The translations under genes were made by a program, and so were the position numbers. A stretch of DNA of 64,000 nt from Cloeon dipterum (Eukaryota > Arthropoda > Insecta > Ephemeroptera > Baetidae): positions 22,499,883 through 22,563,882 of the forward strand of contig NC_088789.1 of NCBI RefSeq assembly GCF_949628265.1. Reading direction: 5' to 3'. Below, in pieces: positions 22,696 to 33,200 of the stretch (position 1 is the first letter of the stretch; each line of letters starts with the position of its first letter). The notes below the pieces were generated by a model. That model was not told the DNA's origin. It made no database searches and saw only the letters and a program-made list of their open reading frames with translations.

Positions 22696-25600
22696 ATGTT
22701 TCTTAGTAGTATTCTCCGGAAACAATGTAAGTTATTAAATTTTTGGTTCAAGGTTTGTCCTTTATACTTGACCAGCAGAGCTTATAATTTATAAGATTTA
22801 TTTTTAGGGAAAATGCTAAAAATTGTGTCATCAATTAAAGAACACGCTAAACATGAGCCAAAAATTCATTTCAAAGTTCAAAGACGCTGGCTACACGAGT
22901 TAAAGTACTTGAGACGTGAGAGATTATTAATTTGTTTCTCATGATTAAATATTTACAAAGTGCAATCTTTAATATGAATTAAAATAAGCAAATATAAATT
23001 ATGGTTAAAATAAAAATTGGGTGGCTATTTATGAGTATAGTTTGAAAATATTAAGCAAATGCAGTTCTCATCTCTTTCTTTACCTTCGAAAAATCATACC
23101 ACAGGATTAACTACAAAGAATTTTGAATCGACATAGTCGTTGAAAAAATCTGACGTTCACTTTCTTATTTTATATAAGTCATGAAATTTCCAGCGAACGT
23201 ATTTTCCTATTTTCTTGTTTCAAAACAAATCCTAGCGCAGACTTTTACTCTTGCAAATAAATATTAAAATATCGTATTATCTGTAGAAAATTTGATTTGA
23301 TGTAAACATAGAAGAAGTCTGAATTTAAAAATTGCAAAATTTATCTTGTAAAAGTGAGCCATCCTATTTTTATTTATAATTAGTTTAAAAAAAGCAATTA
23401 ATTACTTTAATGAAATTATGCAGATTTTAATTTATATTAAATATGTTTCTTATTATATTTGGCCAGACAATGAATTTTATTTGTTTTATACTCTTATTGA
23501 CAGAGCAGAAGGCACTACCCAAGTAATTTGTTTTTAACGTAATTATTTTTTAAAATCATTTTTACAGTTTGGCAGCACGCCGGTCGTCGGGGGTTGGCGA
23601 GCGGGGGCGGGGGCGGGCAGCGGCGGACGTCGCGGCTCAGGGCGATGCTGCAGTCGCAGGATCTGTGCTTCCTGATGGAGGCGCACAATGGGCTGAGCGC
23701 ACGCATCGTGGAGGAGGCGGGCTTCGGCGGCGTGTGGGCCAGCGGCCTCAGCATCTCGGCACAGCTCGGCGTGCGGGACAGCAATGAGGCGTCGTGGACG
23801 CAGGTGCTCGACGTGGTCGAGTTCATGGCCGACGCCACCACGCTGCCCATTCTGCTGGACGCCGACACCGGCTACGGCAACTTCAACAACGCGCGCCGCC
23901 TTGTGCGAAAATTGGAGCAGCGCGGCGTCGCTGGCTGCTGCATCGAGGACAAGCTTTTTCCCAAGACGAACTCGCTGCTCGACGACCGCACCCAGCCCCT
24001 TGCTGACATTAAAGAGTTTGCCCTCAAAATTCAGGTCTAATATAAAATTAAATGGAAAACCTTGAATCAGAGCTTATTAGAATCACGTTCGGAAATTGTC
24101 ATTAATCTTTTTCTATACATCAGAAAAAACTATCACTTTCTATATTATTTTTTGAGGCATTATATATTGCTTGATCTTTCGGAGGGATAAACTTTTAATG
24201 AATTCTTTCAATTCAAGCATATTTTTAATTATGAAATAAGCTCACCAGGGAATTTGTTTTTAACTCGGTGAATTTCACGATTTATAGAGTTCCGAAGGAG
24301 AAAACCTCATTGGGAATCAACATGGGAAATCAATTTTAGAAGACAGTTTTCGCTCAATCAAGATTATTTTTCAGATTGTAGACTATTATGTGACGAGGAA
24401 AATCGATTGATCTACTATTTTTATTAATTGGTCTGAAAAATCAAGGATTACTCATTCTCAGTTTGAGATAAATATATAAGTGCGCACTAAATTTTATTTT
24501 CTAACAGCTATAGGTGGACAAAATCAATATTTTGTCAGTTGCCAAAAATACTTTACTTAACTCACACTCTATTTAATTTTCAATTTGTTCCGATAGTTTG
24601 TACAACATAAAATAATTGAAAATAAAATATAGAGAAGGATAAGAAAGTCTCATCAGGTTTTGGAGTTTTTTCCTCTAAAAATGGAATTTATATGTTAAAA
24701 AATTGTCTTTATTTATCTCTGGGAAAAAATAAAATGCGTTATTTTAATCGATTACATGCACAAAATTAACTCCTCAATCTTCAACAGTAATTATGTTTTT
24801 AAATAATTTATTTTTTAATACTTTAAAACTTGTAATAAATTGTTAAAAATGTCTAATTGAAAAACTTCGACCACTATAAAAATTCGCAGCCTACATCTAT
24901 AAGATGGGAGGATCCATAAAGTTTGGTTTGCGATTAATTTTCTAGTGATTAAAAAAATAATTACATGAAAAAACATAAAATGAGAGTGAGAGCCATACGC
25001 AATACTTTTTAATTTATAATCTAGCGGAAAAACTCCAAGTCAAATTTAAAAAAAAGCTTATTTTTTAAACTTTGATGGTTTAATTTCAACGAAATTCTAT
25101 AAAAAAAATCAGTTGGGCTTACTAAAAAAGCGACTGAAGTCAATTAAATTAATGAGAAAAAAATTATATTTCTTTTTAAAACTATGTTTTGATGTTCCAG
25201 GCTTGCAAGGAACACCAAACCGATCCAGATTTTTGCGTGGTGGCCCGCATGGAGGCGTTCATCGCAGGTTGGGGCTTGGAGGAAGCCCTGAAGAGGGCCG
25301 AGTATTCCGTGACTGCGGGCGCCGACGCAATTTTGGTGCATAGCAAGAAGAGCGATTCATCCGACATTGAAGCGTTCATGCGGCATTGGAACAACAAAGT
25401 ATATAAACCCCTCGACGTTCTACCATGGGTCAATTTTCACTCAAGTTTGTTTTCTAGGCGCCGGTGATAATTGTTCCGACCAAATACTACACCGTTCCGA
25501 CGGGAAAATTCAGGAAAATCGGAGTCTCCACAGTCATTTGGGCCAACCACAACATGCGAGCGTCTGCAAAGGCGATGCAGGAAACGAGCGCCAAGATTTT

Positions 25601-25800
25601 CAAGGAACAATCGCTCGCAAATGTTGAAATCGAGGTTTGTTCTCATTTATAGTGTGAGATTTAAAATCTAATTCATAAAACGCCAGGTGATTCCTGTGAA
25701 AGAAGTCTTCCGTTTGCAGCGGGAGCACGAGCTGAAGGAAGCAGAGGAAAGGTATTTGCCTTCCGAGAAGCCCGCCGACGAGCAAAACAAGAGCATTTGA
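22696..25800 (+). CDS. Phosphoenolpyruvate phosphomutase with mitochondrial-like presequence
   Basis: Five exons (22696-22726, 23568-24034, 25201-25398, 25458-25634, 25687-25800) encode 328 residues. PEP mutase (EC 5.4.2.9) converts phosphoenolpyruvate to phosphonopyruvate, forming the C-P bond that begins phosphonate biosynthesis. It belongs to the isocitrate lyase/PEP mutase superfamily. The signature [10 protein letters not shown] (137-146) is intact. Residues D81, D108, D110, E137, K143, N145 and R182 match the mussel enzyme's D58, D85, D87, E114, K120, N122 and R159 at a constant offset of 23. The K-x-N gating loop separates true mutases from lyases in the family. The extra N-terminus ([20 protein letters not shown], then Ala-Ser-Gly5) is Arg-rich and lacks acidic residues, as in a mitochondrial targeting peptide. 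Exon 1 encodes its first ten residues. Introns and splice sites show it is a host gene, not bacterial contamination. Confidence 0.92.
24035..25200 (+). other. Intron 2 (1.17 kb) of the phosphomutase gene
   Basis: AT-rich, bounded by CAG|GTCTAA and TGTTCCAG. I see no coding sequence or clear repeat in it. Confidence 0.6.
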
Positions 25801-25814: not shown

Positions 25815-28286
25815 AAGGCACGAGGAACACCAAGATCAAAATAAGTGCGGTAATCACCAAGACAATCCCTATCACGCAGATGTACTTTTTCTGAAAAATC
25901 GAAAACAACGTTCAATTTACGTAATAAATCATTAACACGAATCGAAAACCTTTCTAAGCGATGACTTCTTTTTATTTGCCTCTAAGAGTTGTGTTTTCCC
26001 CTGCTCAACTACGCCCAGCGCACTTGCGACGTTCATTTCAATATTATCGACCATCTCTCCCTGAAATATAAATCAATCACATTAGAGTTGGAAATAAGGG
26101 ACGATCGGTCAATTATCTGTGCGACTGATTTACAGTTAAATGAGCTTCAATCACAAAATTCTAAGTTTTGGACCTCATTAAAATTGGTAAGCCCAAAACT
26201 GGCGTCTACAACACTTCTGAATCCGAAGCTAAAACACGTTTAAAACGAGTAAATATAATTAGATTTTTGGTAGATTCAAGAATTTTCCAAACAACCTGAT
26301 GTTTTTTAGGGTTTTTGTATTTTTTTATTTATTTAAAAGACGAAGATTAGATTTTAAAAAGATCAATTTAATTATAAAATTTATCAATTCGTCTGAAACA
26401 AAATCATTGGAAAAATAAAAAAAATAGCGTCTCAATTCCCAATTTCATCAATCACCCTTTTAAGGAGAGTTTTGAAACACATTATTACCAAAAATCGAGT
26501 TTGCTATTGTATTAGGTCGCTAGTGAGAAGGACAAACAGTTCAGATAAGTAGGTTATTTTTTTTAAAAAATTTTGTCTCGACATTTGACAATGAAATTGA
26601 AATAGATACGAATAATGCCTTGCCTGATTGTGGACGAGTAACGCAATGTCTGCAAACAAATCTCTGACTTCCTCTATACTCTTCTCCAAGGCGAGTAATT
26701 CGTCGTGCCTCATTTGAATATCGTCTAAATCTCGTTTTGCCATTAATGTCTGCGCACTGTACTGAAAACAAAATTTAGCACACACCATTTAAATACTTTC
26801 AACACTGTCGTATTAATAAAAAATTAAATTTTTAATGAAATTTATAAAATGGAATAACCAAAGCTTAAAATAAATTTCTTCCTACATTTCCCGTGAAAAT
26901 GGATGCTCCATTGTCGAGCAGTTGCTCCAGCTGAGCGTCAGTCATCGACTCTCCGCGCGATTCCATGGACGATCGCACGGTCGTCAGTTGCTTGTGCAGA
27001 ATCTGTTTCGCCTTTTCACGTTGTCTGTTCTGCTCGTTGTATAGAGATTCCAGGGTCCGTTTCAGCTGCATGCTCAGGGTGCTCTCGTGGATGGCCAAAA
27101 TCCGCGAGCTTGACGCCGTCCGCGGCTCCGGCATTTTCGACGGCAACCCTACAAAAATGGGAAAAATAATGTTTCATAGCGGCTTTTGAAATTAAATTAA
27201 AATTAGAAACCTTTGATTTGCCTGGAAATTGCCATCGCCTTGGTGCGAGCATTTTGTACAGTAATCGACGCCTCCCTCTTTGACACTAAAGTTAAAAAAA
27301 TTAAATTTGTTCAAAAGAGTCAATTTTGGGCTGAGAGCAACGGTCTATAGTGACGTAAAAAAAGCTTGAACTAAACAGATTTTAAATGGGTATAATTATT
27401 CTTAATCAACACAAAAAGACACAGATCTAATATGCGTGTAGTTATTTCTATGGTTATGTAATTGACTTCCTAAGTGAATGGCCATAATTAATATAATAAA
27501 AATATAGTTTACATCAATTTAGTTTTTTAAATAATATAATGAATTAGTAATGTAGCGAAAATGAAAAAAAACATAATATTAAAAACGGTTAATAATGATT
27601 ATTTAGTAAAACGAAATATCACTTTAACATAATATTCAACACATTATTTAAAATAAGCAAACACGATTTAAGACACAAAATAATTAAGGTACATAATTAT
27701 AGTTTTACTTGCAAAGAAATTTATGGAATAAAGAATGTAGACTATAAAAAATATAGCATTAAAATTTACAAGATGTGTAAAACAGAAAAATAAATCTCTT
27801 GATGGAATCAGACATTTTTGTAAATATTCAAATATGAAATAATGAAAAATTTCTGATTTCATCTATGATTAAATTATATTTTTGACATCTTTAAAATAAA
27901 TAAAATGGATTAAAAATTCCAAAGAAAAGTAGGTACTATTTCTTACTCTCAGACGGTGGCGATAGGGAATTCATTGTTTGGTGAATTAACGAGAGGTGCT
28001 GGACGTCTTTTTCAAATAGGCTTAAATTCTCTCTGATTGAGTTGACCTAAAATTAACGACTCCAATTTGTCTGAAAATTTTTTTACTTTCAATTTTACCT
28101 CCTCAAAGAAGTCTTTCATTGCCTGTGGTGACTGATCGATTTGGATCATAACGTCATCCTCCTTGCTCCTATTGTCCTGGCCCTTTTCATTCAAAAACAT
28201 TAACATGTTCGTCCCAAAAGAGATGGAAGTCGATTGTTTACCTCAGGAGCCATTTTTTCCTGCAGTTCCTTCAGTCTGTCCCTCAT
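25813..28286 (-). CDS. Syntaxin (Qa-SNARE), diverged tandem paralogue
   Basis: Eight exons on the minus strand: 28286-28242, 28182-28099 (acceptor may instead be 28176), 28046-27947, 27285-27211, 27148-26886, 26761-26624, 26060-25950 and 25890-25813. They encode about 297 residues. The start MRDRLKELQ is the usual syntaxin opening. The middle is the three-helix Habc region. The SNARE motif covers about 190-272 with the central-layer Gln in HNQGEMVDNIE. A C-terminal anchor (about 275-297, YICVIGIVLVITALILILVF) ends just before the stop, so the protein is tail-anchored and faces the cytosol. Syntaxins drive fusion at the plasma membrane or endosomes. The intron after the central Gln has a GC donor (CAG|GCAAGG). 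Exon lengths match the next gene. It is closest to syntaxin-1/4 types but diverged. Confidence 0.85.
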
Positions 28287-28392
28287 TTCCGATGTGCAGA
28301 AGTAAACTGCTGGTTCTGAGCAGACGGAGCGCCCACAGGACGTTTGTATTTTTATCTGGCCGTGAGTGAGCGAGCCTATTTATCAGGCAGCG

Positions 28393-28408
28393 TGACGTCA
28401 CTGAGTCA
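28393..28408. promoter_or_regulatory. Composite CRE/AP-1 element upstream of the first syntaxin
   Basis: A perfect TGACGTCA (28393-28400) is followed after one base by TGAGTCA (28402-28408), about 110 bp upstream of the syntaxin ATG (28286). These are the CREB/ATF and AP-1 consensus sites. Their promoter-proximal position supports a role in transcription of this gene, but that is inference. Confidence 0.45.
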
Positions 28409-30211
28409 TTAAACCGCCGTTGATAACACACTTGAAGCACACCACACCTATAGGGAAGGCACGAAGTATATACAACTCTAATGCACTGAAGATTGGCTCA
28501 AAATATTTTCAAATAGTTTACAGAAATTTAATTGTTATTACTTATTTTGATATTAAATTCCATATAGGCGAAGGAGGATTAAATTTCCTCCTCAGCAATG
28601 ATTGCATCAATTGACACACCAATCACACCTTTGATAATAAAGGGAGAGGTAAGAGATATTTTGAAAGTGGAAGTCGGCTACATAAATAACAAATCAAACC
28701 TTTTAACCAAAGGGAATGTCTTGCAACACTTTTGTATGTTCTAGAAAGATTAAAAGTATTTTACCGGATGTGCAAAATCACACCATTAGTTTAAGAAAAT
28801 GATTGTTCTCTGCTGCGTTTTACTGCACTCGCACAGCTCCCTGGATTACACTAAAATGGCTTATGTTCTAATAGCCTTCACTTTTACCTGGTCAATTCTG
28901 TTATGATACTTCTCACTTAATAAAATATGTTTAGTTCGTCCCACTCCAAAGAAAATTAAAATGATTAAATAAACCGCTTCCCTGTTTTTATTATCGAGCA
29001 GAACGCGCCCTTCCGGCGCGAACGTATTCAAAACCACAAAATATGTGCAGCAACAAACGCTCGAAGAAAACAAAATAATTCTGTGATATGTATTTGTTTG
29101 TTGCCTCTAAGGCCAGTATTAGACCAAAGAGTGTACAACAACATTGTAAACCTGTTGACCACGTCAAGTATGTTGTTTTCCTATTTTTGCCATTTGACAG
29201 CAACAAAATATGAACAAGACAATTTTATTTACCATCTTTAAATCCGTATTACGCAAACTATGTTTTCTTAAATTTGACCTTTTTAAGCCAAAAAGTATGT
29301 AAGACATTTTTTGTGCAAGCTATATAGCAACGATGAATAATTATTAATTTTTATGTTGTGAAAAAATAAAACCAACTAATCAAACTACAGTAAAAAATCG
29401 GATTTTGTCAAATTTATCGAAACTTTTTGTTTTTTCGCTTAAGTATGAAATCTTTTTTGATTTATGAGTTGTCATTTCTCTACTGACAATGAGTAAATAA
29501 AATACTGATTTTCAATAGGGATCGGAAGCACAGTGTTCGCTTGATTAGCATCTAGCATATATGCAAACTCTGATTTTCTCACAAATTTAAACGGCAATAA
29601 CCCAATACAATTTTAGCTCTCTCCCCCAATTTTTAAAGATTATTATAGATAAAGGCTGAGCTGATTTTTCAGAATTTTTCAAAGCAGATTGAGCTACTTA
29701 ATTATTAATCACAATACCAGGAACAAACGCTATCATTGATTTAAACTTCAAATTTCCTTGTCATTGCGTAGAGTTCGTGGAACAAAATATTACAAATTCT
29801 TCTTAATTTAAAAATGGATTATTTTTTGATTTTCCTGAAAAGCTGTTGCACAGTTAGGTTACATTGAAAAATCGTTCTAGCTACGCAATAAAGCAAGTTA
29901 AGATCCAATAAATATAATAAAATGCCCTGCTGATCCGTAATAAACCAAAATTTGAATCTAAAACATTTTAAAGTCAAGTTAAGTGAGAGTGGCAAGAAGG
30001 AAAATTAAAACTGTTTGATTAAGCACACTTACTCTTTTACTGTACATTTTCTTCATACAATACAGAAATAAAGACACCATTCACAGAAATAATTATTTAA
30101 AAAATAAATTCAGTTCATTGGAGAAGCAATCTTACAGGACTAGAGTAGGAACCATCATATTATGTTAAATAAAGTATAAAGTTGCACACGCGAAACAGTT
30201 TCACTTTCATA
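28409..30211. other. Intergenic region between the two syntaxin genes
   Basis: Mostly AT-rich. It should include the 3' end of the second syntaxin transcript. A fragment resembling the dispersed repeat lies near 29495-29610. No convincing coding exon was found; the small open frames at 28861-29206 show no family resemblance. Confidence 0.5.
29495..29610 (+). repeat. Repeat fragment shared with 36960-37050
   Basis: Both places contain CTGATTTTCAATAGGGA followed by a CTTGATTAGC or CTGATTAAC stretch, GCAAACTCT and CAYAAATTTAAACGG in the same order and spacing. A weaker match occurs near 48150-48185. The fragment appears to be a variant end of the dispersed family DR1. Confidence 0.45.
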
Positions 30212-33200
30212 TCATCTCCGCATTACGGTTTTGGGAGTCGATGTGCCCGTTACCGGTGGGGCGACAGGGACCTTTTCGGGCATCAGGGTGAAGACTAAAA
30301 TCAGGGCGACGATGATGGCGATCACAATCAGCACGATGATGATGATGATCTTTTTCTGAAAAGCCATAAAACGTGTTAATTAACTTTGTTGATTGAATTT
30401 CTTCTCATGTTGACAAATATTTTGATCGAAAGTAACATTAAAATAAATAGTTGTTATTCATTATATAAAACTACCCTTTGAAGAGATTAAAAATGATTAA
30501 AAAATGGAAATCTCGCACAGACAGACAAAAATTTAAGTTAAATTGGAACAATTTTGATACTTTTATCTAGAGATACCATCCAGAGCAGTGTGCACTGATC
30601 CATTGTAGGATGAATTGATTAATTTATGTAAAAATGGATTCTAGAATTGAGTTCCTATGCGGTGACTGGAAACGGAGAGATCGACAAAAAACGTCAACTT
30701 TTGTTCCAGTTTAACTTCCTTCAATATGCGGATTTTTTATAGAGATATTTCAAAATTTCGTTTTGAAAGGGCGGGAAAGTTGTTTGTCAAAATTGGTAGA
30801 ACATTTTCAACACTATCATGAAAATATCAAAAGTTTCCTGAATAAAACGATATTTCCAAAAAAATTGCGAACTTGTTCATTTCTTGTAATTTTGACCTGC
30901 TATTTTCATGTCTGCCTTCAAGATTTACAATGGCAACTCTTTGACAAAATTCCATCTGAAGACCCCCTGCCAAAAAGGGGTTCCATCTAATTTAGTTTAG
31001 GCCCTCTCTCTCTGTACACCTTAAAAATAGTGTATAGGATCTCGATATAAAATAAAAAATAGTGGAGAAATTAGTATCCAAAAGCCGAAGAATCAATTCA
31101 AATACCAAATTATTTTTCAAGGAGGGCCCATTCACCAACTACTGCATGAACACAAGCCACTGAACAAGAAATTCCACCATTTATTTCTAGTATAATTTAA
31201 TCAAAAACTGTCTCCAAAAATTACTTTTCTGGCTTTGCTCCTGTACACGACCGCCTTTTTGGTCTGCCTGGCTGCCTCGGAGACCGCCTCCCCCGCGTTC
31301 ATCACGTGTGTCTCGATTCGGTCTATCATATCACCCTGAAAAATAATCAGAAGGTGGCATTGAAGTGAGTAGGAAAGTCCTTCTTGTGGTTTACTGGGTC
31401 ACACAATTATTTATCACAAAAGATAACTTAAATAATGACCTGGGTTGCCACGAGCATCGCCATTTCGATAAATAGATCGCGCAGCTCGGTGATGTTTTTC
31501 TCGAGTTTGATAATCTCCTTGTGGCGAGCCTCGACATCCGCCAGCGCTTGCCGCGCTTCCTGAGTTTGCACCACGATCTGTGAATAATATATTTCACTCG
31601 TCAGACTACAATTTCACAAGCAATGGAAATTCGTCCACTTACGTCGCCTGTGAAGACTGCCACATTTCCGTTTTCAAGCATTTTCTCCAATTCATCGTCT
31701 GTTGTTTCTCTGTTGGCTGTTGAAGGACAAATGTATTTTTTAAAAGTGGTTGCAAAATCTTGTCAAGAAGTTAAATGAAATAGAATTTTAACTAGAATGA
31801 AATTATTTTAAAGTTGCAAAATATATTTTGGAATATTTTGAACTAAGCGAAAATCATTTTTTGGTTATTAAAAACGCTGATGACCTTTCCTCTCATAAAC
31901 TAATTTATAAATTGATCTAAATTTCAAACTAATATAGTGCCTTGATTCATTTTTTTATTTATTTCCAACAAATAAAAGGTTTGAAGCGATTCAAAATTTT
32001 AGAAAATAAATATTTTTAATCAATAAAAAATGTTCAAGTTTCTGGTGGTTTATATTTAACATTATTTACTTTTCCAAATGCTCAATTATTTTTAAATTTC
32101 TGATCTTAAAACTACAAGTTTAATGATTTTTTAATGATTTGCGACATGTGTAAAAGACAGCCTATTTTCTATTTTAATATTTTTTATTTTACCGATTTTC
32201 AACTGCCTCCGAATTCTTTCCTTGCAGTCCTCCCTGTACTTGAGCTGGGTTGTGTTGTAGGCGATGAGCGTGTCAGAAAAAATCCTAGACAGCGACTGGT
32301 ACTGCGTCTTCCTGATGCGAAGCGTGGCCGAGGGTCGGCCGTTCGCTTTCTCCTCTGCCCTTGCGACGCACTCCGCCAACTCTACACGCAACCAACACAC
32401 TCGGTTAGCTCAGCCCAAACGCACCTAATAATTTCAAAACCGACCTTTCAACGCCAGTCTGATTTGGTTCGAAGTCATCTTGATCGCCGCCATTCTGTCC
32501 TCCAACTCGGTCTTCGCCACTGCGGAAATTAACAAAAATTGTGTCACAACCCTCTGCTGATTGTATTTTGGCGTGTGTTTATTTATATACATACATTCGT
32601 CAGGCCTCGGTGACGAGATGATGCTGCTCTGAAGCCGGCGCATCTCCCTCGTGTGGTTTCCCGTTGTCTCGATCCATGACCGTATCATTTGTACCTTGAA
32701 TTTCAGTTTGAAGATTAACGAATGCAAGAAACAATGGAGCTATTACTGTACTTGTTTTAAAATTCAGCCATAAATTTCATACATCTTTAACAGCTGCTTA
32801 GTTGCCGTAAAGTTTTGGACAAATTGCATTGATTGAGAGATTAAATAAAAAAATTTATATGCCATTTTTTTGTCAAATTCAAATTAAAAATGTTTAATTT
32901 GCCTAATTTTATAATTTCGGAGTTTTTTTAAATGAGGTCTTTGCCAATTTAAGATGGACTTCAGAATAAACAAAGGTTTGCAGTTTTGACCGTCTGGATT
33001 TTCAGGGAATGTTTAAAAAAGATGGGAATTTCCGCTTATTTAAAGTATGGTTCAAGAGTGGTTGAGAACCAAATAATTCGTGCTTATATTTGATAGTGCT
33101 GTGACGGTTATAAAAGCTAAAAAATATCCAATTGGTTTAAATTTCTCAGCCCTATAAGTATAGTGATCATGAAATCAATTGTTGAAATTAAAAAAAAAAT

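What the first reader, a model, noticed from the sequence alone, without database searches (positions are those of the whole stretch)
22696..25800. Complete, intron-bearing PEP phosphomutase in an insect-like genome: a possible animal phosphonate pathway
The sequence shows a spliced 328-residue protein with the PEP mutase signature [10 protein letters not shown] and all seven catalytic or metal-site residues at a constant offset from the mussel enzyme. PEP mutase makes phosphonopyruvate, the usual entry to 2-aminoethylphosphonate and phosphonolipids. The best-studied insects are not known for this pathway. That this species makes phosphonates is inference, because no decarboxylase or transaminase gene lies nearby.
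Basis: partly seen in the sequence, partly recalled or inferred. Interest (0 to 1): 0.75.

Follow-up and report, generated by a model that had tools for sequence, protein, structure and literature searches.

The report
Mayfly PEP mutase gene, ordinary ancestry
The window holds an intact gene for the enzyme that starts making carbon-phosphorus compounds, in a mayfly; it is an old animal gene already in the databases, so this is a sound but mostly ordinary find.

Summary
Five exons with four GT-AG introns (22696-25800) encode a 328-residue PEP mutase. It passes the curated PEP-mutase model, fails those for phosphonopyruvate hydrolase and methylisocitrate lyase, and aligns ungapped to the solved mussel enzyme over 289 residues.

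The genome is the mayfly Cloeon dipterum, for which the protein is already deposited. The tree puts it with mayflies, inside arthropods, in a eukaryote clade without bacteria: vertical descent.

The second pathway enzyme, phosphonopyruvate decarboxylase, is encoded about 6 Mb away on the same contig and passes its own model. Both proteins have basic N-termini suggesting mitochondrial import (inference). The third, 2-AEP transaminase, is undecided: that search did not complete in 22 tries. No phosphonatase was found.

Insect 2-AEP is not new: reviews cite it on locust glycans, and velvet worms have it with all three enzymes expressed. Likely role: 2-AEP synthesis for glycans or sphingolipids. 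No holometabolan or hemipteran is named in the three capped homologue lists, which hints at a loss still to be tested.

The parts
22696..22726 (+). exon 1 of PEP mutase: start codon and first 10 codons plus one base, beginning of a basic N-terminal extension
   Evidence: in-frame ATG and GT donor; Neocloeon protein P0002 has a comparable N-terminus; absent from deposited model P0001
23568..24034 (+). exon 2: rest of the N-terminal extension and the first half of the barrel, with D81, D108, D110 and the gating loop [10 protein letters not shown]
   Evidence: AG acceptor and GT donor; PF13714 exon match 115.7 bits
25201..25398 (+). exon 3 with R182 and H213
   Evidence: AG and GT borders; PF13714 exon match 49.4 bits
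25458..25634 (+). exon 4, from residues [11 protein letters not shown] to ANVEIE
   Evidence: AG and GT borders; aligned to mussel enzyme
25687..25800 (+). exon 5 and stop codon TGA
   Evidence: AG border and in-frame stop

Best explanation
The gene is the apparently single-copy, vertically inherited PEP mutase of the mayfly Cloeon dipterum. Shown: an intact spliced reading frame with the active-site residues and mutase-type gating loop of the solved mussel enzyme, and a second gene for phosphonopyruvate decarboxylase in the same genome. Inferred: both proteins enter the mitochondrion, PEP mutase turns phosphoenolpyruvate into phosphonopyruvate, and the decarboxylase at once removes CO2 to give phosphonoacetaldehyde, which pulls the unfavourable first step forward (established knowledge of this enzyme pair). 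A transaminase, not yet located here, would then make 2-aminoethylphosphonate, which is attached to glycans (as in locust) or ceramide (as in molluscs).
For: Gene model. TIGR02320 395.8 bits against a cut-off of 319.55; hydrolase 228.7 against 374.4 and methylisocitrate lyase 144.8 against 354.4. Mussel mutase 485 bits, hydrolase 2dua 212 bits. Active-site letters kept. The only PF13714 matches in the genome are two exons of this gene (2 matches from 3 candidates scored). Decarboxylase gene at C4:16538835-16541113, TIGR03297 458.5 against 312.5, with its first exon also in the fetched stretch. Both trees place the proteins in eukaryote groups. In 65 of 80 bacterial loci the mutase has a decarboxylase-like match in the fetched flank, always on the same strand; of nine Bacillota loci looked at, six held DNA beyond the decarboxylase and all six start a transaminase frame there. 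Velvet worms: 2-AEP on glycans, all three enzymes expressed; locust glycans carry 2-AEP. N-termini: 77 of 87 mutases with a long extension and 96 of 102 decarboxylases of 430 residues or more have basic N-termini.
Against: The 2-AEP transaminase was neither found nor excluded, because the search did not complete in 22 tries. No transcript, enzyme assay or phosphonate measurement from a mayfly was seen. Mitochondrial import rests on charge counts without a control set and not on a trained predictor. The Ppd tree separates eukaryotes from the two Nitrospira rows only weakly (83/73). The PEP-mutase tree contains long viral-contig branches that the program flagged.
Confidence: 0.82

Rival explanations
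1. The protein is a PEP-mutase-fold lyase or phosphonopyruvate hydrolase with another substrate.
For: The fold is shared; TIGR02321 and TIGR02317 match with low E-values.
Against: Scores lie far under those families' curated cut-offs, while the mutase cut-off is passed; the mutase loop EDKxFPKxNS is intact, and a Mytilus mutase is 73% identical over 88% of the query.
Confidence: 0.03
2. The gene was gained recently from bacteria, or is contamination.
For: Bacterial mutases reach 68% identity in their best segment.
Against: Four introns with GT-AG borders; it sits on a 36.4-Mb contig beside exons that match DEAD-box helicase and arginase; the tree puts it with mayflies, then other arthropods, in a eukaryote clade supported 100/99.
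Confidence: 0.02
3. The mutase and decarboxylase feed a phosphonate other than 2-AEP, for example a reduced hydroxyethylphosphonate, or the pathway stops at phosphonoacetaldehyde.
For: The transaminase has not been located; the two Nitrospira stretches read (13.5 and 14.5 kb) carry mutase and decarboxylase, and among their frames of 250 residues or more I recognised no transaminase by eye.
Against: 2-AEP is the phosphonate reported from locust, velvet worm and molluscs; velvet worms express the transaminase.
Confidence: 0.13

Closest known systems
PEP mutase of mussel (PDB 1pym, 1m1b, 1s2t, 1s2v, 1s2w)
   Same: ungapped over 289 residues at 485 bits; every active-site position checked carries the same letter
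   Different: the mayfly model adds residues 1-28 in front of the aligned part; the deposited Mytilus galloprovincialis protein is 68% identical in the 15-row alignment and 73% over the 88% aligned by BLASTP
Neocloeon triangulifer and Ephemera danica PEP mutases
   Same: 81% and 75% identity; a supported mayfly clade (100/97)
   Different: nothing of note; ordinary species divergence
2-AEP pathway of velvet worms, and 2-AEP on a locust glycoprotein
   Same: same first two enzymes as in velvet worms; chemistry reported in those animals
   Different: product and third enzyme not shown in the mayfly
Phosphonopyruvate hydrolase (PDB 2dua, 2hjp, 2hrw)
   Same: same superfamily
   Different: window protein scores 228.7 bits against a hydrolase cut-off of 374.4

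Membership tests
PEP mutase (TIGR02320) | score over the curated equivalog cut-off | tested here: met
   395.8 against 319.55 bits
PEP mutase (TIGR02320) | metal and substrate residues of the mussel enzyme (positions recalled) | tested here: met
   all listed positions carry the expected letter and are invariant in 15 rows
PEP mutase (TIGR02320) | gating-loop motif EDKxFPKxNS | tested here: met
   residues 137-146
PEP mutase (TIGR02320) | interconverts PEP and phosphonopyruvate | not testable with these tools
   needs an assay
2-AEP biosynthesis pathway | phosphonopyruvate decarboxylase in the same genome | tested here: met
   four exon matches, none over the cut-off alone; spliced model TIGR03297 458.5 against 312.5 bits
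2-AEP biosynthesis pathway | 2-AEP transaminase in the same genome | tested here: inconclusive
   genome search with TIGR02326 not answered in 22 tries; no significant hit in the window (best E 0.54) or in the 9.9-kb decarboxylase stretch (best E 7.4)
2-AEP biosynthesis pathway | 2-AEP present in tissue | not testable with these tools
   needs 31P NMR or mass spectrometry
Phosphonopyruvate hydrolase (TIGR02321) | score over the curated cut-off | tested here: not met
   228.7 against 374.4 bits
Methylisocitrate lyase (TIGR02317) | score over the curated cut-off | tested here: not met
   144.8 against 354.4 bits
Phosphonate degradation by phosphonatase (TIGR01422) | phosphonoacetaldehyde hydrolase in the same genome | tested here: not met
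   0 matches at E <= 0.001, 0 candidates in the first look; the search works exon by exon and could miss a gene cut into short exons

The most novel reading that the evidence does not exclude
Phosphonate synthesis is an ancestral mitochondrial pathway of animals that mayflies, dragonflies and the grasshopper-cockroach group still run, attaching 2-AEP to glycans and perhaps to ceramide in place of the ceramide phosphoethanolamine usual in insects, and it was lost once on the way to Hemiptera and Holometabola, which is why model insects lack it.
Probability: 0.35. Interest if true: 0.45.

Novelty: already known. Interest (0 to 1): 0.22.

Why it matters
If mayflies make 2-AEP, insect membranes and glycoproteins hold a form of phosphorus missed by methods tuned to phosphate esters, and emerging aquatic insects would carry phosphonate from fresh water to land. 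The two genes also give a simple way to date when insects lost the pathway. None of this needs a new kind of enzyme.

Tried and rejected
Considered and rejected: lyase or hydrolase identity; recent bacterial origin and contamination; a second PEP-mutase-family gene in the genome (one search matched only the two longest exons of this gene); a degradation role through phosphonatase (no match).

Led nowhere: looking for the transaminase in the window and beside the decarboxylase (best E 0.54), and beside the decarboxylase in two Nitrospira genomes, chosen because their decarboxylase is the bacterial one most like the animal one (frames of 250 residues or more judged by eye). Two paper searches for arthropod phosphonate enzymes gave 0 papers each; one search listed 3 papers, all on bacteria. 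One search (passages of PMC11491810) gave nothing used here. Not done: structure prediction, since a solved mussel relative makes it uninformative.

Rows dropped: the PEP-mutase tree used the window protein, 41 of 120 listed proteins, 28 of 80 genome loci and 5 of 7 viral-contig loci. One viral row (L092) had 11 stops read as X and two fusion proteins were cut to 330 residues; the program flagged six long end branches (four of them viral-contig rows) and warned that long branches meet. The label 'Creolimax-like' in that script is mine and unverified; P0072 is an unnamed eukprot protein. The Ppd tree used 36 of 120 proteins, 18 of the 65 genome loci with a hit, and one viral locus.

Full report
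What is there. The window is C4:22499883-22563882 of a 190-Mb, 10-contig genome. Five exons on the + strand, 22696-25800, join to a 328-residue protein; all four introns are GT-AG. Exon 2 is 66% G+C while the two long introns are 26%. Upstream on the - strand lie frames that match arginase (78.9 bits) and DEAD-box helicase (73.6 bits); downstream on the - strand lies a syntaxin-like frame whose match, 23.9 bits, is under Pfam's cut-off of 26.7 (one frame of each scanned).

Which organism. The best protein match is a Cloeon dipterum protein, 99% identical over 89% of the query, called 'Hypothetical predicted protein' by NCBI and phosphoenolpyruvate mutase by UniRef; the next is Neocloeon triangulifer at 81%. 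The decarboxylase that I assembled from this genome is 100% identical to a deposited C. dipterum protein (P0121) from a contig of 36,396,660 bases, which is the length of contig C4 here. C. dipterum is a mayfly. A published assembly of the species is 180 Mb (PMC7250882, passages only); the word stem 'phosphon' does not occur in that paper's main text.

What the protein is. Pfam names PEP_mutase at 211.4 bits. NCBIfam's PEP mutase equivalog gives 395.8 bits against 319.55, while hydrolase and methylisocitrate-lyase models stay far below their cut-offs. The mussel enzyme aligns over residues 29-317 without a gap at 485 bits; the bacterial mutase 5unc scores 253 and the hydrolase 2dua 212. The active-site positions of the mussel enzyme, which I name from memory, fall on the expected letters and are invariant across a 15-row alignment of animals, protists and two fusion proteins. 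In the PDB the D58 equivalent is an A in entry 1s2u.

Where it comes from. In a 75-row tree the window protein groups with Cloeon, Neocloeon and Ephemera (100/97), then with other insects and a barnacle (97/80), inside a clade of animals and protists (100/99) that holds no bacterium. The springtail Orchesella falls outside the arthropod branch in an unresolved part of the tree, and the long branches that the program flagged lie outside this clade. Together with the introns this means ordinary vertical descent. Named arthropods in the first list include mayflies, damselflies, locusts, a katydid, a cricket, stick insects, cockroaches, a termite, a springtail and a barnacle. A second search from the cockroach protein named no holometabolan or hemipteran either; the lists are capped at 120 and many rows are unnamed, so this is a lead, not proof of loss.

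The rest of the pathway. A phosphonopyruvate decarboxylase lies on the same contig, about 6 Mb away on the - strand (four exon matches, the best 146.5 bits). Six exons at C4:16538835-16541113 give 399 residues, which score 458.5 bits against a cut-off of 312.5; its first exon, about 0.9 kb upstream, was found by comparison with P0121. A 55-row tree puts it with animal and protist decarboxylases, with the two Nitrospira rows as nearest bacteria: eukaryotes plus Nitrospira stand apart from the other 17 bacterial and viral rows at 100/100, eukaryotes from Nitrospira at only 83/73. Of 80 bacterial mutase loci, 65 have a decarboxylase-like match on the same strand in the fetched flank, 58 of them aligned over 300 residues or more. 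Of nine Bacillota loci whose frames I listed, six held DNA beyond the decarboxylase, and all six fragments there match 2-AEP transaminase TIGR03301 at 247-303 bits, under its cut-off of 360.8 because the fetched DNA ends early. Phosphonoacetaldehyde hydrolase was not found in the mayfly genome, which argues against a degradative role. The transaminase search did not complete (22 tries), so the third step is open.

Compartment. Of 120 listed mutases, 87 have 40 or more residues before the conserved EAHNG or EAHSG, and 77 of these have a net charge of +3 or more in the extension; of 102 decarboxylases of 430 residues or more, 96 have net +2 or more in the first 30 residues (no control set was run). 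One protist homologue is named mitochondrial by its depositors. Mitochondrial synthesis is therefore likely but inferred.

What is known. Two reviews state that N-glycans of locust, or of a locust glycoprotein, carry 2-AEP; both cite Hard et al. 1993 on apolipophorin III (PMC6994554 and PMC6935376, passages only; the 1993 paper itself not seen). [quoted passage not shown] its authors expect phosphonates in other arthropods and name locusts as confirmed (PMC10540779, part 1 of 3 of the text plus passages). Ceramide 2-AEP is called the main sphingolipid of molluscs and cnidarians, whereas the arthropod lipid is ceramide phosphoethanolamine (PMC9174665, passages). I saw no paper on mayfly phosphonates in my listings. 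Only one search had mayfly as a term, it listed 15 of 1,011 papers, and the library holds open-licence papers only, so this is weak evidence of absence.

Verdict. The enzyme is a known animal gene, already deposited for this species, and by the reviews insect 2-AEP has been in print since 1993.

Noticed in passing
P0182, P0215, P0221, P0225 (tree): Deposited bdelloid rotifer decarboxylases group with the monogonont Brachionus (98/90) among animal sequences, although a 2012 paper counted phosphonopyruvate decarboxylase among foreign bdelloid transcripts (PMC3499245, passages). Vertical descent looks more likely for these proteins; the paper's own transcripts were not in the tree.
   Followed up: partly
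L103:2310-5268 and L104:8167-11047: Nitrospira carries a mutase with a C-terminal extension like that of fusion proteins P0117 and P0118 (judged by eye), beside the bacterial decarboxylase most like the animal one (50-52% identity); no transaminase was recognised among frames of 250 residues or more in the stretches read.
   Followed up: partly
L088:2001-4010: A contig filed as viral (IMG/VR) encodes a mutase 56% identical to the mayfly one followed by a decarboxylase-like frame.
   Followed up: no
window 23568-24034: Exon 2 is 66% G+C, above the other exons (32-55%) and the two long introns (26%).
   Followed up: no
window 26000-32900, - strand: Two stretches that look syntaxin-like by eye lie one after the other downstream of the mutase and may be a tandem pair; of three frames scanned only the first gave a Pfam match, and that is sub-threshold.
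   Followed up: partly
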